Assembly: GCA_021801125.1 (NCBI GenBank) | Contig: JAJYYI010000017.1 | Location: forward strand, 97,095 to 161,094 | Origin: Deltaproteobacteria bacterium | GTDB lineage: Bacteria > Desulfobacterota > Binatia > Binatales > Binataceae | Reading direction: 5' to 3' | Length of the DNA stretch: 64,000 bases | Notes under the pieces: generated by a model | The model's input: only the letters and a program-made list of their open reading frames with translations | The model's database searches: none | What the model was told of the DNA's origin: nothing | Part shown: in pieces, positions 35,797 through 44,566 of the stretch | Numbering within the stretch: the stretch's first letter is position 1 | Layout: the number at the start of each line of letters is the position of its first letter | Made by a program: the position numbers and the translations under genes

Positions 35797-36717
35797 ATGC
35801 TGCACTACCTAATAAAACGGATTGCCTTCGGGGCGTTGGTTCTACTCGGGGCCTCGCTGATTACGTTTTGCATCGCCTTCGTGATTCCGGCCGACCCGGC
35901 GGTTGCGATTGCCGGGGTCAAAGCGGACCCGCACACGTTAGCGACGATCCGGACCCAACTCGGACTCGATCGGCCGCTGTACATTCAATATGTCCGCTAT
36001 GTATGGCGCGCGCTCCATGGCGACCTGGGTCGTTCGTACGCGCGCCGTCAGAGCGTGACCGGCCTTATCGTGGCGCGTTTTCCCGCCACGGCAGCGCTCG
36101 CGGTATCCGCGATGGCGCTGTCGCTGATTCTCGGCACGCTCGGCGGGCTCGTGGCAGGTGCATATCGAGGACGAGCGCTCGACAATTTATTGTTGATAGC
36201 CTCGTTAATCCTCGTGTCGATTCCCGTGTTTTGGTTGGGCACGATGTTCCTGGTCGGCGCCGCAGCTCACTTTCGCTGGCTTCCATTGGGCGGATTTGAC
36301 GGCATGCGAAGTCTCTTGATGCCGAGCCTTGCGCTGGCGCTCGGCTCCGCCGGCTACTATTCGCGGATCCTGCAGGCCAACCTGGCAGAGGTCGTCGGTC
36401 AAGATTACATCAGGGCGGCGCGCGCCAAGGGTTTGTCGCCGGTGCGAGTGATGCTCCGGCACGCGCTGGCTAACGCTATCTTGCCTCTGGTGACGCTGGC
36501 CGGGCTCGATTTCGCCGGACTCCTTTCCGGCGTAGTGCTGACTGAGACGGTGTTCAATTGGCCGGGCCTTGGGCGACTGGCGTTCGAGGCGGTATTCAAC
36601 CTCGACATCCCTCTAATTATGGGAACGGTGCTGTTCTCCGCCTTCCTTATTGTGGCGGCGAATCTGGTAGTCGACCTGCTGTACGCCTGGCTCGATCCCC
36701 GCACCCACCTGGCTTAG
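35797..36717 (+). CDS. Peptide/opine ABC transporter permease (DppB-type)
   Basis: 'MLHYLIKRIAFGALVLLGASLITF', 'QDYIRAARAKGLSPVRVMLRHALANAILPLVT'. Confidence 0.93.
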   Translation: MLHYLIKRIAFGALVLLGASLITFCIAFVIPADPAVAIAGVKADPHTLATIRTQLGLDRPLYIQYVRYVWRALHGDLGRSYARRQSVTGLIVARFPATAALAVSAMALSLILGTLGGLVAGAYRGRALDNLLLIASLILVSIPVFWLGTMFLVGAAAHFRWLPLGGFDGMRSLLMPSLALALGSAGYYSRILQANLAEVVGQDYIRAARAKGLSPVRVMLRHALANAILPLVTLAGLDFAGLLSGVVLTETVFNWPGLGRLAFEAVFNLDIPLIMGTVLFSAFLIVAANLVVDLLYAWLDPRTHLA

Positions 36718-36720
36718 ACG

Positions 36721-37539
36721 ATGATAAGAGCGGGGCGTCTTAACTGGCTCGAGATAGTTGGCGGCACGATCGCGCTGAGCCTGGTCGTGGTCGCCCTGTT
36801 CGCGCCGGTGATAGCACCTCACGACCCGACGCGCGCCGTGGCGCAAACCTTCGGCGACCCAGGGCCGCCCAGCCTCGCCTTTCCATGCGGCACTGATCAG
36901 CTCGGGCGCGACGTTCTATCGCGCCTGATCTATGGTGCGCGCGTCTCGCTCATCGTGGGGCTGAGCGCGATGGCCGTGGCGATGACCGTTGGCGTGGCCG
37001 CCGGGCTCTGCGCCGGGTTCTTCGGCGGATGGACCGAAATGGTCCTGATGCGCCTGACCGACGTGATGCTCACACTGCCGGGGTTGCTTTTGGCGATGGC
37101 CTTCGTGGCCATTTTGCGGCCGAGCCTGTTGACTATCCTGCTCGTCATTAGTCTGGTGTCGTGGACGGGAGTGGCGCGCGTGGTCAGAGCTGAGACGCTG
37201 TCGATGACCAACCGCGACTTCGTCCTAGCCGCGCGCGCGCTCGGCGCCTCGGCTGGACGTTTGATGATTCGCCATGTGATGCCCAACATCATGCCCACTG
37301 TGGTGGTGATGGCGGCGCTGAGCACGTCGGGAACGTTGCTCCTCGACGCGGGTCTCAGCTTCCTAGGTCTGGGCGTTCCGCCGCCCACACCGAGCTGGGG
37401 CCGAATGGTCGAGGAATCACAGATCTACTTTCGCACCGCTCCGTGGCTCGCCTTTTTTCCAGGACTGGCGATTCTGTACGCGGTCCTCGGCTTCAACCTC
37501 CTCGGCTACGGCTTCTTGCGCAGGCGAAACCCCCAATGA
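36721..37539 (+). CDS. Peptide/opine ABC transporter permease (DppC-type)
   Basis: 'FPCGTDQLGRDVLSRLIYGARVSLIVGLSAM', 'NRDFVLAARALGASAGRLMIRHVMPNIMP'. Confidence 0.93.
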   Translation: MIRAGRLNWLEIVGGTIALSLVVVALFAPVIAPHDPTRAVAQTFGDPGPPSLAFPCGTDQLGRDVLSRLIYGARVSLIVGLSAMAVAMTVGVAAGLCAGFFGGWTEMVLMRLTDVMLTLPGLLLAMAFVAILRPSLLTILLVISLVSWTGVARVVRAETLSMTNRDFVLAARALGASAGRLMIRHVMPNIMPTVVVMAALSTSGTLLLDAGLSFLGLGVPPPTPSWGRMVEESQIYFRTAPWLAFFPGLAILYAVLGFNLLGYGFLRRRNPQ

Positions 37540-39182
37540 GAGGCGCATTGCGCACTGTTTTGTTCGCCGCTTTTGCCGGCGCGTTGGCGCTGACCATCGG
37601 CGGATGTCGAGCGGACCTTCCGGCAGACTCGTTCCCATCCGGCGCCGCCGTGCTTCGTCTGGCCCTGGCCGATGACGTACCGACGCTTGATCCCGCGGCG
37701 GGCTATGACGCCGCCTCCTGGGAGTTCGAGCAGGTGTTGTACGACACATTGGTGCGTTATGCGGCCGACTCCAATGAGCTTCGGCCTGACCTCGCCCTGT
37801 CATGGGGGATATCACCCGACGCGACGGTATTTACTTTTCATTTGCGGCACGACGCGAGCTTCACCAACGGGCGACAGGTGACCAGTGCCGACGTTCGATA
37901 CTCCATCGAACGGGTGATCAACCCCAAAACCCGTTCTCAGGGAGTCCAGTACTTTTTGCCGCTTCTTGGTGCCGCCGACTTCGCGGCCGGGCGCACCCCC
38001 CATGCGCGCGGGATCGAGACGCCCGACCCTTACACGATAATTTTCCGCCTTGACAAGCCTGACCCGATCTTCTTGCATAAGCTCGCGATGCCCTTCGCGG
38101 CGGCCGTTCCGAAGGAAGTGGTGGAGCGTTGGGGCGAAGACTTTGCCCGCCACGCGGTCGGCAGCGGCCCCTTCATGCTCAAGCAGTGGCTTAGCGGCCA
38201 GCGGCTTATTTTGGTCAAGAATCCTCATTACTTCCTTTCAGGCTTACCCAAACTGGACGCGGTCGTCGCTCTGATCGGGGTGAACGAGGAGCTGCAGTGG
38301 CTTAAGTTTGAAGCGGGCGAAATCGACATCTCGTCAATCCCGCCTGCCGAGTTCACCTACGTGATGAAGACGCCGCGGCTCAAGGCGCTGACCATCCATC
38401 ACGTGACGGCGGTCACAAGCTACCTCGGGATGAATTGTCAGATGCCGCCGTTTAACGACGTGCGGGTGCGCCAAGCCTTCAACTACGCAGTCAACAAGCC
38501 GAAGCTCGTCGCTATCTTGAACGGGCGCGGCGTCGTGGCGCGCGGAGTGTTGCCCCCCGGCATGCCGGGCTACGACCCGGACATCAGCGGCTATGCTTAT
38601 GACCCGGCCAAAGCGCGCCGCTTGCTGGAAGAAGCCGGAGTGCGCGCCGGCTTTGCGCCGGTGGTCTGGCTCACGTCTGATCCGACGATGCTGGTCCTCG
38701 GGCAATCAATCCAACAAGATCTGGCCTTGGTCGGCATCAACCTGGTCCTAAAACCGGTAGCCTGGGGTCCGCTCCTCGACGCCGTGCGTGAGCCGCACAC
38801 TGCGGAGCTTTTCCTGCTTGGCTGGGGCGCCGACTTTCCAGACCCGCAGAATTTCCTCGAAGTGCTCTTCTCAAAGGAGCAGTGGGGCGCGAATAACGAC
38901 ACCTTCTATTATGACCCCAAGGTGCAGGAACTGCTGACGGAGGCCAGCGTAGTCGCCGATCCGAAACGTCGTTACGAACTGTATCAGCAAATCCAACAGA
39001 TCATCGTGAACGACGCCCCATGGGTCTTTCTATACCATCCGGTGGCCTACGTCATTCGCCAGCCTTGGGTGCACGGCATCCGCCTCCATCCCCTTCGTCC
39101 CGCTCGTCTTGACTACATCTACGTCACCGCGCGCGGGGCGGAGGGTGAACAAACGTCAGGCGAAACCAACCAAACGCGGTAG
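37536..39182 (+). CDS. ABC transporter substrate-binding lipoprotein (SBP family 5)
   Basis: 'ALTIGGC' lipobox; 'LRLALADDVPTLDPAAGYDAASWEFEQVLYDTLVRYAADSNELRPDLA'; ATGA overlap with the permease. Confidence 0.92.
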   Translation: MRGALRTVLFAAFAGALALTIGGCRADLPADSFPSGAAVLRLALADDVPTLDPAAGYDAASWEFEQVLYDTLVRYAADSNELRPDLALSWGISPDATVFTFHLRHDASFTNGRQVTSADVRYSIERVINPKTRSQGVQYFLPLLGAADFAAGRTPHARGIETPDPYTIIFRLDKPDPIFLHKLAMPFAAAVPKEVVERWGEDFARHAVGSGPFMLKQWLSGQRLILVKNPHYFLSGLPKLDAVVALIGVNEELQWLKFEAGEIDISSIPPAEFTYVMKTPRLKALTIHHVTAVTSYLGMNCQMPPFNDVRVRQAFNYAVNKPKLVAILNGRGVVARGVLPPGMPGYDPDISGYAYDPAKARRLLEEAGVRAGFAPVVWLTSDPTMLVLGQSIQQDLALVGINLVLKPVAWGPLLDAVREPHTAELFLLGWGADFPDPQNFLEVLFSKEQWGANNDTFYYDPKVQELLTEASVVADPKRRYELYQQIQQIIVNDAPWVFLYHPVAYVIRQPWVHGIRLHPLRPARLDYIYVTARGAEGEQTSGETNQTR

Positions 39183-39785
39183 CGCAGATCAGCTACCGTT
39201 CAATCTATTGACCGGGCTCGCCGCGCTTGATTAATCTTCCCTTGCGATGCGGCTTTTAAGCTCATCCAGGAAGGTCGCAGGCGGCCTTGCCCTCTTGGCG
39301 CTAGTTGCCGTTCTTCTCGAACGATGGTACCCGTCTTCAGCTGCTATCGGAGGACCCGAGGCGGTAAAAGGCAGCCGAGTCTGGCGCCTGACCGAGCGTA
39401 GAGGCGTGGCCGTCGCGGTCCGGCCACATTCCCCCGGCCAATCCTCTTTTTTCTCGCAGCCCCACCTGATCGCCCCCCGTTTGGTCAGCTCGGCACTCCG
39501 CCTTGTCTTGCGACCCGCAAAATCGCAGTCTGAGGGCCGGTTTTCGACCCGCTGTAGTCACTCCGCGTCCTTCGCTCGACCGCCGCCCCTTAATTTCGAC
39601 CTTTAAGGCCCACAGGCTCAGCTCCTGGGCCGCGAAACTACACCATTAAGGACTCAAAACCGGACAACGCATAATTCGCCCTGCTGCGGCTTTATGCAAC
39701 GCTTCGATGCCCGTACGACACGCCACCGGCGTCGTCTAGGGATGGAGCGCCGTAACTCTGCGCACCTGGCCCAAGGGAGCTGAAG

Positions 39786-40868
39786 GTGAGAGATAACGAT
39801 TGTGACAACGACGATTCGCGCCTCGCGCGGCGGCGCGGGAATAATCGCGGTAAACAGCGGCCGCGAAGCGGGCGGGGTGAAAACACCCAACGCTCGCAGC
39901 CTCGTCGAGAAGCGCAGACCCTACTCGCGATGGCTGCGGCCGCATGCGCAGCGATTCTGGGTCTGGCATCACCCGGCCGACCTGCCCCGATCACGTTTAT
40001 CACCGCATTGCCGGTGGCGCAGGACCAAGCGGTTACCCGCTTCTATATGGACCCCCATCACGTCTCCGACGAGAACGAGCCTTTCGACGAGAACCTCTGG
40101 AATCTTTCCTTTCCAGCAACTTTGGCGTGGGGGCCGACGGCGCGCCTCGCTATCTTCGTGACCGGTACCCCTGAGTACGATTTTATCCACCAAAACCTTT
40201 CGTCCGGCCAACGGGTTTACAGAAGCGCGAGCGGGTTTGGCGACACGGTGGGTTTCGCTCGCTACACCTTGTATTCCAAGGACTGGATCGGCGGCACCTT
40301 TCGCGAAGATCCTCTAATCGGCCTCTATCTACCAACCGGCTGGTACAACAAGTCTGACATCTACGGGCGGCTGCCTGAGGTGATGCAGAACGGATCGGGC
40401 TCAGTTGCGCCGTACATCGGAAACGTTATTTTGTGGAAGAACTTCGATTACGAATTTGACCATGATATTACTTTTCGATCCAATCCCGCAGCCTCTTCCG
40501 GGTATCAGGAAGGTGACGCTTTCCGCACCGACGCGGCGCTCTACGTGCGAGTGTACCCCTGGGTATTGCCCGACACCGGCTTAAACGATCAGCTCTGGGT
40601 GGGTGTGGAAACCAACCTTGCCTGGAACGGCAAAAGCGAGATTTCAGGCAATATCGATAATGCAACCGGCGGCTGGGAATGGGATATCGATCCTGGCATC
40701 TTTTTGGGCACTCCATTTTGGACGACTGGAGCGGCGCTTCAGTTGCCTGCGTGGCAGGACCTGTATGGGCCGTCACGGTTGTACGGGGGATGGCGGCTTT
40801 ATCTGTACTTCGAGTACTATTGGATAATGCCGTCGCTGCCGGAATCGGTTAGAAGATGGCTGCCATAA
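39786..40868 (+). CDS. Outer-membrane barrel protein (Phenol_MetA_deg/transporter-like), module copy 1
   Basis: Exported; 'APITFITALPVAQDQAV...LIGLYLPTGWYNKSDIYGRLP...NPAASSGYQEG...LYLYFEYYWIMPSLP'; ~50% identical by eye to 42101..43171. Confidence 0.75.
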   Translation: MRDNDCDNDDSRLARRRGNNRGKQRPRSGRGENTQRSQPRREAQTLLAMAAAACAAILGLASPGRPAPITFITALPVAQDQAVTRFYMDPHHVSDENEPFDENLWNLSFPATLAWGPTARLAIFVTGTPEYDFIHQNLSSGQRVYRSASGFGDTVGFARYTLYSKDWIGGTFREDPLIGLYLPTGWYNKSDIYGRLPEVMQNGSGSVAPYIGNVILWKNFDYEFDHDITFRSNPAASSGYQEGDAFRTDAALYVRVYPWVLPDTGLNDQLWVGVETNLAWNGKSEISGNIDNATGGWEWDIDPGIFLGTPFWTTGAALQLPAWQDLYGPSRLYGGWRLYLYFEYYWIMPSLPESVRRWLP

Positions 40869-41671
40869 AACCGGTCGAGTCAGCGTGGTTGGCACCATGG
40901 AGCTGGTCGCAGTTTAGCCGCAGCCAGAGGCAACAAGCGATGTCAATTAGGGCGTTCTTAGTACTCACTGCTTTTGTAGTTGCGCCGCCGCTGCTTGCTT
41001 CCGGTATTCCAGGCATGGCCCTGGCGGATGACAACCGACCACTGTTGAGCAGCTCGATGCTCCCCATGAGCAATCAGGATGGCGCGGGCCGAACCCACGG
41101 CTTTGGGTTGGATAGGTGGCGCACCGCGCGCGCGTTTCAACTCGCTACCGAAGGCACGGACGATTCTGCCTCGCCTGACGAACAGCGCCTGTCAGCCCCA
41201 CGCTCTAACCACGGCGCCTCCGAGGCGCCTTCCGCAAGAGACGGCGTCGAAAGCCGTTGCTCGCCGCCGACCGTCTTGCGAGCCAGTGTGAATGTACGCG
41301 GCTTGATGTCGCCGCGCGCCGCCCAGAACGTGTTCATACGTCTGATGAAGATGAAGGGAGTCCAGGCCTTCAAGTGCGATCTGCGGCCGAACATCATCAC
41401 GGTCGATTTTCAACCAGGGGTCGACATGACGGCGATACAGGTCAGAGACGAGGTGATTCGGGCCGGCTGGACCCCTGGGGGCGTTGAGCTCCATAAAGTG
41501 CCGCTTTACCAAGCGACCAAAGACGAAATGGGAAGTGATTGGTACATTCTCCCCGAGTTCGGAACGGGGTCAGCATTTATGCGTTGGGTGTATCTGAATC
41601 TCACGCCTTGGAACATCAGAAAGAGCGCGTACGTCGACCCACCTGGCCGAAGTCAGGCAGACTGCAGGTAA
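40856..41671 (+). CDS. Exported HMA-fold-like protein lacking CxxC, module copy 1
   Basis: 'VNVRGLMSPRAAQNVFIRLMKMKGVQAFKCDLRPNIITVDFQPGVDMTAIQVRDEVIRAGWTP' follows the HMA betaalphabeta-betaalphabeta pattern; the signal suggests the true start could be 40940. Confidence 0.65.
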   Translation: MAAIKPVESAWLAPWSWSQFSRSQRQQAMSIRAFLVLTAFVVAPPLLASGIPGMALADDNRPLLSSSMLPMSNQDGAGRTHGFGLDRWRTARAFQLATEGTDDSASPDEQRLSAPRSNHGASEAPSARDGVESRCSPPTVLRASVNVRGLMSPRAAQNVFIRLMKMKGVQAFKCDLRPNIITVDFQPGVDMTAIQVRDEVIRAGWTPGGVELHKVPLYQATKDEMGSDWYILPEFGTGSAFMRWVYLNLTPWNIRKSAYVDPPGRSQADCR

Positions 41672-42100
41672 GAGGCTTCGCTGGTGCATGATCGAGAGGA
41701 CGCATCGCTGCGCCGGCGTCAAAGATCGCGGCTTTCGGCAGTCGCGCGGGATCGTGCTGATGGTTCAGAGGCGCAGAGAGCAGATTCGTGAAAATCGAAC
41801 CGAGTGGAGGTCGATTGCCCGCGGCTGAGCGAGGCTTACGCCGCCCAAGACCGCAATCTGAAGCCCGTTTCTAACACTCTCCAGCAACCTCCGTCCTCCG
41901 CTCGACCATACGCCTGTAAGCCTGACGATCTGCGCCGTCGGACCTCTATATCACCTGACGACACCCGCTAACCCCGGCGACCGGGGGACAAAACTGGCGC
42001 ATTGGTGCCACCGTGTTAGGTGTGTTATGGTCACACAACGCACGGTTTTGTAGGCAAGTGTGCAGAGCGATGCGCAGTCGCCCTCCAAAAAGCGTAAATC

Positions 42101-43171
42101 GTGGAAGACGAAATTTGTTCAAAGCACGAGATGATTGCCTCACATAGGCGCAGCGGCCGCCAAACTCGGGCGTTGGCGCAGTACATACGCCGTCGAGGTT
42201 GTGCAGTCATTCGGCATCGCTCAAGAATTCACGCGCTGCTGGCTGCAGTTGGGGTGATGTCGATAATGATTCTTGTAGCCGCGCCGCCGGTCTACAGCGC
42301 GCCGATCACTTTCGTAACCGCACTGCCGGTGGCTCAGGATCAACTTGTCTGGCGGAACTACTTTGACCCGGGGTATGCAGGCGACGATCCTACCTCGCGA
42401 GATCGCGACCTTTGGAATCTCTTGTATAACCCGGTCTTCGCATGGGGTCCCACCGCCGATCTGGCGATCTTCGCAAGCCTAACGCCCCAGTACAGCTTTT
42501 TAAGCGAGAACACAGCTCAGGGACGCCTCTCCAGCAGCGCCGGAGGTCTCGGGGACAGTCTGATTTTCGCCCGCTACACTGCCTATTTCAAAGACTGGCT
42601 GGGCGAGACCCTCAGGATTGATCCGCTGGCCGGAATCTACATTCCCACCGGTTGGTACAACAAATCGAACGCCTACGGCCGCCTTCCCCAGGACATGCAA
42701 GTAGGCTCCGGCTCGGTCGACCCGTATTTCGGTCTTACCGCCATGTGGAAGACCCAGCTTAACGAGTTTGACTGGGACATAACCTATCGTTACAACCCGG
42801 CCGCCTCGAGCGGCTATCAGTTGGGCAACTCGTTTCACACCGATTTCGCCTACTACCGGCGTATTGTGCCGTGGATTTTGCCTGACGAGGGTCTCGACAA
42901 TCAGATTTGGATAGGGCTTGAAACCAACCTGATTCGTAACGGAACCAGCCAAGTTTCGGGCTTCAACGATCCCGCTACCGGAGGCTTCGTCTGGTACCTC
43001 GACCCTGGAATCTTTTACGCGACCCCTTTCTGGACTACTGGGATGGCGGTTCAAGTTCCAGTCATTCAGCAACTTAACGGACCCGATCGGCTTTACGGCA
43101 GCTTCCGCCTCTACCTATACTTTGAGTACTATTTCATGATGCCGTCGCTACCCAAGTGGGCTCAATTTTGA
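42101..43171 (+). CDS. Outer-membrane barrel protein, module copy 2
   Basis: Paralogue of 39786..40868: 'APITFVTALPVAQDQLV...LAGIYIPTGWYNKSNAYGRLP...NPAASSGYQLG...LYLYFEYYFMMPSLP'. Confidence 0.75.
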   Translation: MEDEICSKHEMIASHRRSGRQTRALAQYIRRRGCAVIRHRSRIHALLAAVGVMSIMILVAAPPVYSAPITFVTALPVAQDQLVWRNYFDPGYAGDDPTSRDRDLWNLLYNPVFAWGPTADLAIFASLTPQYSFLSENTAQGRLSSSAGGLGDSLIFARYTAYFKDWLGETLRIDPLAGIYIPTGWYNKSNAYGRLPQDMQVGSGSVDPYFGLTAMWKTQLNEFDWDITYRYNPAASSGYQLGNSFHTDFAYYRRIVPWILPDEGLDNQIWIGLETNLIRNGTSQVSGFNDPATGGFVWYLDPGIFYATPFWTTGMAVQVPVIQQLNGPDRLYGSFRLYLYFEYYFMMPSLPKWAQF

Positions 43172-43253
43172 TCATCGCTAATCGGTGCCTTCGCCACGGC
43201 CACTGGTCACAGACGCCGGTGGAGCGCTCGCTGAGGACAGACTTAGGAGCATC

Positions 43254-43802
43254 ATGAGGCCAAAAAAGGCAAGAGTTCTCGGGCTTGTTCCGGCTCTTCT
43301 GCTGGCGTGTCTCTTTCTCGGGGCCGGACTGTCCGTAGCCGACGACCGCGGTGCGAGCCAAGGCCAAGGGGAACCGACGCTCACTCGGGTTCATATGCAG
43401 GTGCGGGGCCTCGTCTCGCCACGCGCAGCACAAAACGTCTTTATCCGACTTGATAAACAGAAAGGGGTCAGGGCCTTCAGATGTAACCTGGGCTCCAATG
43501 TTATCCTCGTGGACTTCCAGCCGAACCAGCAGGTCTCGAAGGAGGAGGCTGAACGGGTGATCAGGTCGGCAGGATGGACGCCAGGATGGATCAAGAGTGA
43601 ACAGGTGCCGGTACGGCAAGCCGTGGCCGACGAAGCCGGCGAATACTGGTACGTCCTGCCGCAGCTTGAGGGAGCTTCTGGTCTCAAGCGATGGCTGGTC
43701 ATAAACTTTGCCCTGTGGACGCGGAATAAGGACCTGAGCATACCCCCCTCCGATCCTGCGCCAAAGGCGCCGAACCAGGGAAGAGGTAGCAATCATGAAT
43801 GA
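43254..43802 (+). CDS. Exported HMA-fold-like protein lacking CxxC, module copy 2
   Basis: AGGAG RBS ahead of ATG at 43254; signal 'VLGLVPALLLACLFLGAGLSVAD'; 'VRGLVSPRAAQNVFIRLDKQKGVRAFRCNLGSNVILVDFQPNQQVSKEEAERVIRSAGWTP'. Confidence 0.7.
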   Translation: MRPKKARVLGLVPALLLACLFLGAGLSVADDRGASQGQGEPTLTRVHMQVRGLVSPRAAQNVFIRLDKQKGVRAFRCNLGSNVILVDFQPNQQVSKEEAERVIRSAGWTPGWIKSEQVPVRQAVADEAGEYWYVLPQLEGASGLKRWLVINFALWTRNKDLSIPPSDPAPKAPNQGRGSNHE

Positions 43803-43932
43803 TCGCTATATAGCCCAACCATCCGGCGCCCGAAGAAGTTCCTTGCTCGGTGTTTTGAACGACTTGCGAAGCTGGATCAGAAAACGCGCGACAGAAGCTA
43901 AATCCGAATGGGTTTGGGTCAGCGGGGTTTGA
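43795..43932 (+). CDS. Candidate 45-aa small ORF translationally coupled to HMA-like copy 2
   Basis: ATGAATGA overlap with the stop of 43254..43802; encodes MNDRYIAQPSGARRSSLLGVLNDLRSWIRKRATEAKSEWVWVSGV; below the supplied ORF track cutoff. Confidence 0.35.
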   Translation: MNDRYIAQPSGARRSSLLGVLNDLRSWIRKRATEAKSEWVWVSGV

Positions 43933-43960
43933 AGCGGCTACGCGGTTCCGTCGAAACCGC

Positions 43961-44566
43961 GTGAGTCAGGCGAAGCGAAGCGTGCGAATCCTCCACTCAC
44001 AAGGTGTTCAACCAGGGAGTAGAGCCGCGCGAAGGAAGCTGAGGCGATCCCCAACGGCAACGCATAAGAGCGACTTTACCGGACGTGCCGCGAGGCACGA
44101 GCCTGCCGCAAGAGTCGCCTTGATTTCATTCGCGATCTTCGGGCTCTTGCTTTTATACGCGACGAGCATACGCGACAAGCTCGCGTTCGCAGACCCCGCA
44201 ACCTTTATTACGACGATTCCCGCCAACGGCAGCGTCGCCGACACCAAGGGATGCGTCGCGGAAAGAGTCCGAACGGAGGATCCGACCGCCATTTACCGCG
44301 CTACCGTAACCGTCCTTGGCGTGGTCTGGCCGGAGCAAGTTCGCGTGGTGGAACTTAGCCTTAAGGCGATACCAGGGGCCCGGGCGGTAAAGTTCGACAT
44401 GGGAGACGGTATAGCCGTGGTTGACTTCGCGCCGGGCGTTAAGGTCAGCGAGGCGTGTATCCGCCATGTGATCAGCGCCGATTCCTTGAGCGCCGGACAA
44501 ATAAAATTCAGCGCGCTTTCTTTCGCCGGCGCGCCGTACGTGGCACCCCCCGCAGGGTCCAAGTAA
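43961..44566 (+). CDS. HMA-fold-like protein, divergent third copy with N-terminal TM
   Basis: TM 'VALISFAIFGLLLLYATSI' then 'ATVTVLGVVWPEQVRVVELSLKAIPGARAVKFDMGDGIAVVDFAPGVKVSEACIRHVISADSL'. Confidence 0.6.
   Translation: MSQAKRSVRILHSQGVQPGSRAARRKLRRSPTATHKSDFTGRAARHEPAARVALISFAIFGLLLLYATSIRDKLAFADPATFITTIPANGSVADTKGCVAERVRTEDPTAIYRATVTVLGVVWPEQVRVVELSLKAIPGARAVKFDMGDGIAVVDFAPGVKVSEACIRHVISADSLSAGQIKFSALSFAGAPYVAPPAGSK

What the first reader, a model, noticed from the sequence alone, without database searches (positions are those of the whole stretch)
39786..44566. Duplicated outer-membrane-barrel plus degenerate-HMA module: candidate undescribed envelope system
Seen directly: the order is barrel1 (39786-40868), HMA-like1 (40856-41671), barrel2 (42101-43171), HMA-like2 (43254-43802), HMA-like3 (43961-44566), all on +. 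The two barrels share long motifs (PITF[IV]TALPVAQDQ, YxPTGWYNKS[DN][IA]YGRLP, NPAASSGYQ, RLYLYFEYY[WF]MPSLP-like). The two following proteins share RGL[MV]SPRAAQNVFIRL and a C-terminal W-Y-[IV]-L-P...RW segment. Both partners were therefore duplicated together, implying co-function. Inference: a two-component envelope system (barrel plus periplasmic HMA-like partner), perhaps for ligand or metal-complex transfer. I do not recognise a described system with this composition.
Basis: partly seen in the sequence, partly recalled or inferred. Interest (0 to 1): 0.78.

Follow-up and report, generated by a model that had tools for sequence, protein, structure and literature searches.

The report
Outer-membrane channel with Cys-less metallochaperone-fold partner
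Two neighbouring gene pairs each encode an outer-membrane channel and a small periplasmic protein with a heavy-metal-chaperone fold that has lost its metal-gripping cysteines; the same pairing recurs in distant bacteria, so it looks like a real two-part envelope system that has not been described in the open literature searched, derived from a metal-handling one.

Summary
The window carries two tandem barrel + HMA-like pairs and a third HMA-like gene. Barrels are 53% identical; partners share RGL[MV]SPRAAQNVFIRL and a W/RW tail. AlphaFold gives a ~12-stranded barrel matching FapF and COG4313 (4RL8), and a confident beta-alpha-beta-beta-alpha-beta domain matching MerP/CopZ/CCS. In the window's class and phylum, 21 of 23 barrels of this subfamily have the HMA partner beside them (one with an ORF between), against 1 of 36 weaker PF13557-type barrels. 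A reciprocal search from the HMA alone returns mostly the same loci. Pair distances correlate (r = 0.73). Genes are under purifying selection. New here: the partner's metal site shows a gradient, CPFCAYG (canonical), selenocysteine versions (UPIU, CSLU, PPCU, all TGA), then Cys-less (NPFSSFG, SPRAAQN). Cys/Sec versions sit near MerT, MerP, MerR, P-type ATPases or DsbD. A Cys-less pair also occurs on an alphaproteobacterial mine-water plasmid. Best reading: a soft-metal outer-membrane channel/chaperone module whose partner, in this lineage, became a metal-free channel accessory. Substrate unknown. Known folds, undescribed pairing: new variant of a known kind.

The parts
39786..40868 (+). Barrel 1: outer-membrane channel of the PF13557/COG4313/FapF superfamily (signal-peptide start probably ~39930)
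   Evidence: ORF; 53% identical to barrel 2; superfamily through relatives; structure of its paralogue
40856..41671 (+). Partner 1: secreted HMA-fold protein, Cys-less site SPRAAQN (likely start ~40940; HMA region 41270-41599)
42101..43171 (+). Barrel 2: same family; AlphaFold pLDDT 83, about 12 strands, best PDB matches FapF and COG4313 4RL8
43254..43802 (+). Partner 2: signal peptide plus HMA fold with Cys-less site SPRAAQN (ORF opens at 43185; HMA region 43377-43706)
43961..44566 (+). Partner 3: diverged HMA-like protein without its own barrel (site WPEQVRV; HMA region 44291-44512)

Best explanation
Each pair is one functional unit in the cell envelope: a small ~12-stranded outer-membrane channel plus a periplasmic HMA-fold subunit that works at the channel's inner face. 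In the Cys/Sec forms found in relatives the partner most likely takes a soft metal (Hg- or Cu-like) from the channel, or hands it over, and the pair works as an outer-membrane metal-passage module. In the window's lineage both metal-ligating positions are gone while the fold, the linkage and the selection remain, so the partner now most likely acts through protein contact, as a plug, gate or docking subunit of the channel, with a ligand that is not held by thiolates. Shown: pairing, folds, loss of Cys/Sec, purifying selection, metal-gene context of Cys/Sec forms. Inferred: physical contact, direction of transport, the plug/gate role. Unknown: the substrate.
For: Pairing: 21 of 23 strong barrels have an HMA neighbour against 1 of 36 weaker PF13557-type barrels. 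The five strong hits outside the class were not in the profile and all five are paired. Reciprocal HMA searches: class, 15 of 19 hits beside a strong barrel, plus partner 3 in the window cluster and one beside a distant barrel; phylum, 12 of 15 in barrel clusters. The gene order flips between lineages, and an HMA-barrel pair lies on the Acidibrevibacterium plasmid. Fold. Gradient of the metal site. Metal context of Cys/Sec forms: MerT and MerP in L119, MerR plus an untyped MerT-like membrane protein in L123, a MerA-like flavoprotein in L120, DsbD in L121, P-type ATPase and CcdA in the Marinobacter plasmid. Selection: pN 0.11-0.17 against pS 0.61-0.71. Correlated divergence. Envelope placement: signal peptides, and lipoboxes with Ala at +2 in four relatives.
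Against: No complex was modelled and no physical contact shown. No metal gene lies beside the Cys-less pairs themselves. Two strong barrels (G024, G085) have no neighbouring partner, and in G064 an ORF of about 1 kb lies between. Partner 3 has no barrel of its own. The distance correlation partly reflects shared phylogeny.
Confidence: 0.5

Rival explanations
1. The Cys-less partner still carries a ligand: a hard or intermediate metal, or a metal complex, bound by new residues, and passes it from the channel to an inner-membrane importer such as the peptide/nickel-type ABC transporter encoded just upstream (35797-39182).
For: The ABC permeases and solute-binding protein (PF00496) lie directly upstream in the window and in the sister species, and related ones lie near the pair of G249 from another class. 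HMA ancestry is that of metal carriers.
Against: The loop positions are occupied by N/I/V/S/A/R/W and S/T/A/G/L/Q, which form no consistent ligand set. The ABC link appears in only two independent neighbourhoods out of about twenty, and such transporters are common.
Confidence: 0.25
2. The barrel is an ordinary COG4313 channel for hydrophobic molecules and the HMA-fold protein is a periplasmic carrier or chaperone for that molecule.
For: COG4313 channels are thought to take up hydrophobic compounds (PMC4493636), and 4RL8 is among the best structural matches.
Against: Cys/Sec relatives of the same pair sit beside mercury or copper genes rather than catabolic genes. HMA domains have no known hydrophobic-carrier role (general knowledge).
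Confidence: 0.15
3. A secretion channel like FapF, with the HMA-fold protein as its passenger or export chaperone.
For: FapF is the top structural match, and L041's barrel weakly matches the FapF model.
Against: Barrel 2 shows no long N-terminal coiled coil, and no amyloid-like repeat gene was seen nearby. Partners in four relatives are lipoproteins, which fits anchoring better than release.
Confidence: 0.06
4. Chance neighbours, or a decaying remnant.
For: Loss of Cys could be decay; one locus (G046:C24) is a truncated barrel fused to the partner.
Against: recurrence; purifying selection; a Cys-less pair is also kept in Alphaproteobacteria.
Confidence: 0.03

Closest known systems
COG4313 / PF13557 (Phenol_MetA_deg) outer-membrane channels, e.g. 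Pput2725 (4RL8)
   Same: Twelve-stranded small barrel; five of 15 relatives hit PF13557; PTG and QxGSG-like motifs shared across the aligned subfamily
   Different: Window barrels are below Pfam detection and belong to a subfamily defined by an HMA partner gene; no HMA partner is mentioned in the passages of the 4RL8 paper that were read
FapF amyloid secretion channel (5O65, 5O67, 5O68)
   Same: Best structural match of the barrel (E 5e-10, TM about 0.6)
   Different: No long coiled-coil N-terminus and no Fap operon
MerP / CopZ / Atx1 HMA metallochaperones
   Same: Fold and profile; signal peptide as in MerP
   Different: No CxxC in the window; extra C-terminal W/RW segment; linked to an outer-membrane barrel rather than only to an inner-membrane transporter
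UxxU metal-binding (seleno)protein NF041115
   Same: HMA domain with Sec at both metal positions, as in L040
   Different: 42 bits against a cut-off of 95; not a member. The window copies have neither Cys nor Sec

Membership tests
PF13557 / COG4313 outer-membrane channels | About 12-stranded beta-barrel | tested here: met
   AlphaFold model of barrel 2, pLDDT 83; FapF and 4RL8 are the top PDB matches
PF13557 / COG4313 outer-membrane channels | Pfam PF13557 match at the curated cut-off | tested here: not met
   Window barrels do not match; 5 of 15 aligned relatives do
PF13557 / COG4313 outer-membrane channels | N-terminus inserted in the barrel lumen | tested here: inconclusive
   The N-terminal segment of the model is low confidence (residues 21-31 below 50)
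FapF | Long periplasmic coiled coil, helical plug and Fap operon | tested here: not met
   No long N-terminal domain in the ORFs or model; no Fap-like genes seen among the ORFs nearby
HMA domain proteins (PF00403) | Beta-alpha-beta-beta-alpha-beta fold | tested here: met
   Model residues 65-142, pLDDT about 90-97; matches to CCS, CopA, MerP, CopZ; profile search
HMA domain proteins (PF00403) | CxxC metal site | tested here: not met
   SPRAAQN, SPRAAQN and WPEQVRV in the window; canonical or Sec in relatives
HMA domain proteins (PF00403) | Pfam gathering score | tested here: not met
   Partner 3 at 13.2 bits against 24.8; partners 1 and 2 no match
MerP equivalog TIGR02052 and CopZ equivalogs | Curated score | tested here: not met
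   All tested relatives are below the cut-offs
UxxU metal-binding selenoprotein NF041115 | Curated score | tested here: not met
   L040 42 bits and L041 36.5 bits against 95

The most novel reading that the evidence does not exclude
A dedicated two-component outer-membrane channel whose HMA-fold subunit descends from a thiol/selenol metallochaperone and has been re-used, without metal, as the gate or docking piece of the channel.
Probability: 0.4. Interest if true: 0.75.

Novelty: new variant of a known kind. Interest (0 to 1): 0.58.

Why it matters
How soft metals cross the outer membrane is poorly known compared with the inner-membrane Mer and Cop steps (general knowledge). A recurrent, reciprocally linked barrel plus HMA pair, in Cys, Sec and Cys-less versions, gives a directly testable candidate. 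The natural series from CxxC through UxxU to no ligand would separate the metal-binding role of an HMA domain from its protein-contact role. It also gives a likely role to a slice of the PF13557 'transporter' family, whose name (phenol degradation) misleads here.

Tried and rejected
1. Pfam and NCBIfam on the window proteins alone: no useful match. 2. Genome-contig scan with the two-row alignment: only the sister species; whole-genome searches did the work instead. 3. Viral contigs: none. 4. Sequence search of solved structures with the barrel profile: none; fold search succeeded. 5. A regular expression for the HMA motif was too noisy and was replaced by a profile search with TGA read through. 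6. The upstream ABC transporter as a constant part of the system: rejected as general, found only in the genus and near G249's pair. 7. Promoters and terminators: promoter-like sites at the level of shuffles (2 against 1.6), terminator-like sites slightly above (10 against 5.9); not informative. 8. SECIS hairpins: one stretch folds better than shuffles (z -2.6), one marginal, one not; not decisive. 9. PQQ genes on the Acidibrevibacterium plasmid lie about 6 kb away on the other strand; not taken as linked. 10. Papers: none holds PF13557 with PF00403, or COG4313 with the HMA domain name.
Full report
OBSERVATION. The barrels align end to end at 53% identity, with long shared blocks (PITFxTALPVAQDQ, PTGWYNKS, NPAASSGYQ, RLYLYFEYY). 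Partners 1 and 2 share RGL[MV]SPRAAQNVFIRL and the WY[IV]LP...RW tail; partner 3 is shorter and more distant but is found by the partner profile. Pfam and NCBIfam give nothing reliable for the window copies, so the case rests on relatives and on structure.

FOLDS. From a 15-sequence alignment AlphaFold2 models barrel 2 at mean pLDDT 83, pTM 0.77, with about twelve long strands. Foldseek against the PDB ranks FapF (5O67, 5O65, 5O68) and the COG4313 channel 4RL8 first, E about 1e-9, TM about 0.6, then autotransporter barrels. More distant relatives hit PF13557 above its cut-off. From 17 partners the model of partner 2 has a domain of pLDDT about 90-97 with the order beta-alpha-beta-beta-alpha-beta (residues 65-142), after a hydrophobic N-terminal helix. 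Foldseek finds CCS, CopA, MerP and Atx1/CopZ domains (E 1e-3 to 1e-2 only, the domain being a third of the query), and a profile search of PDB sequences finds copper-ATPase HMA domains, CopZ and MerP. So 'degenerate HMA' is right.

RECURRENCE. A profile of the two window barrels, run on the 148 genomes of the class, found loci in 12 genomes, and the partner profile lit up an ORF beside nearly every strong hit. With the 15-row profile the class and phylum searches gave a two-group picture, scored. 23 barrels score at or above about 165 bits (or are split or partial members of the same set), and 21 have an HMA domain next to them. In G064 an ORF of about 1 kb lies between; G024 and G085 lack a neighbour. 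G085's barrel reading frame is broken, and G024 keeps a lone partner at the end of another contig. Of 36 weaker PF13557-type barrels (140 bits or less), one has an HMA neighbour (L099). Fifteen of the strong loci were used to build the profile, so the cleaner test is the five new strong hits in other classes (G249, G296, G235, G511, G206): all five are paired. The reciprocal search from the degenerate HMA profile gave 19 class hits, 15 beside a strong barrel, plus partner 3 inside the window cluster and G044:C52 beside a distant barrel. In 395 genomes of the phylum it gave 15 hits, 12 of them in barrel clusters; one of the other three begins 415 bases from a contig start. The order differs: barrel-HMA in the window's class, HMA-barrel in several others. 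On plasmids the pair appears in Acidibrevibacterium fodinaquatile (Alphaproteobacteria; annotated 'heavy-metal-associated domain-containing protein' then 'transporter') and, with a barrel fragment, in Marinobacter salarius.

DUPLICATION AND SELECTION. In both the barrel and the partner, pair 2 is closest to the single pair of the sister species (84% and 74%), pair 1 is next (59% and 48%), and G044:C3 follows. The pair therefore duplicated as a unit. Over 20 pairs the barrel and partner distances correlate at r = 0.73 (10,000 permutations, none as high), and r = 0.88 within the SPR group; shared ancestry inflates both. Nonsynonymous change is far below synonymous: barrel2 pN 0.11 against pS 0.71, partner2 0.14 against 0.67, third pair 0.11 and 0.17 against about 0.61. 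Synonymous sites are near saturation, so only the direction is firm. The genes are not decaying.

THE METAL SITE. Aligned partners form a series. G064, G143, G249, G296, G235 and G511 have CPFCA[YF]G. G132 has U-P-I-U and G138 C-S-L-U, with TGA exactly at the Cys positions; so do the lone G024 partner (PPC-U-AYN), G044:C52 (D-U-AVC), G066 (G-U-GFC) and G181 (CVL-U). tRNA-Sec and SelB are above cut-off in G024, G044, G132, G066 and in the window's own genome, but not in G138, so the G138 reading is doubtful and the others are good selenoprotein candidates by sequence (G181 was not tested for the machinery). The third pair and its orthologue have NPFSSFG, G033 IPFTAFG, and the Acidibrevibacterium plasmid VPFSVFG. 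The window group has SPR[AG]xxN, and partner 3 WPEQVRV. G024 carries the N of the SPR group together with Sec at the second ligand position, so the SPR group probably descends from a ligand-bearing form. The replacements are not a consistent set of metal ligands.

CONTEXT. Cys/Sec pairs sit beside MerT and MerP (L119), a MerA-like flavoprotein (L120; only the general Pyr_redox families were matched, so this is a likeness), MerR with a membrane protein that resembles MerT but has no Pfam match (L123, where the barrel is a distant one), DsbD (L121), and P-type ATPase plus CcdA on pSMR5 with a merR about 4 kb further on. Cys-less pairs have no metal gene beside them. In the window and its sister species a peptide/nickel-type ABC importer lies upstream, and a related one lies near G249's pair; this is too few to count as part of the system. 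Partners in G044:C59, G044:C27, G040:C29 and G046:C24 have lipoboxes with Ala at +2, which in E. coli-type sorting fits the outer membrane.

MECHANISM. Shown: a conserved, reciprocally linked pair of an outer-membrane channel and a periplasmic HMA-fold protein; loss of the ligands in this lineage; continued selection. That last step is the one I hold at about 0.5. That the pair is a functional unit I hold at about 0.9. Import is assumed because COG4313 channels are viewed as uptake channels (PMC4493636), but export is not excluded.

NOVELTY. Both folds are known, and NCBI annotation already names single members ('transporter', 'heavy-metal-associated domain-containing protein'). I found no paper in the open library that treats the pair; subscription papers were not searched. 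Hence: new variant of a known kind.

LIMITS. MAG contigs break near some loci. Selenocysteine is read from sequence only. The survey covers the window's phylum and the plasmid collection, not all bacteria.

Noticed in passing
L040:1188-1685; L041:9391-9888; L122:~8155; L123:~8103; L128 minus strand upstream of 9486; L138: Candidate HMA selenoproteins with in-frame TGA exactly at the CxxC positions (UPIU, CSLU, PPCU, DUAVC, GUGFC, CVLU), two of them in the window's own family; tRNA-Sec and SelB are present in most of these genomes.
   Followed up: partly
G000:C18:20369-21728 (L005:8289-9729): Third, diverged barrel + Cys-less HMA pair (NPFSSFG) in the same genome; an assembly gap (NNN) breaks the barrel frame. 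Orthologous intact pair in the sister species (L028).
   Followed up: yes
L029:7920-9002 (G046:C24): One ORF joins the N-terminal half of a barrel to a lipoprotein-type HMA partner: an in-frame deletion or an assembly join.
   Followed up: no
L123:6169-8959 (G044:C52): MerR regulator, distant barrel, HMA with Sec, MerT-like membrane protein in a row: looks like a mercury-type operon with its own outer-membrane barrel.
   Followed up: partly
window 39247-39606: Small ORF with an N-terminal hydrophobic segment just upstream of barrel 1; a similar ORF lies at the same place in the sister species (L027:8118-8474).
   Followed up: no
window 35797-39182: Peptide/nickel-type ABC permeases and solute-binding protein (PF00496, 299 bits) directly upstream of the pairs, conserved in the sister species.
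   Followed up: partly
L117:7517-8536 and L120:9479-10003: NHL-repeat (beta-propeller) protein gene directly after the HMA-barrel pair in two genomes of other classes.
   Followed up: no
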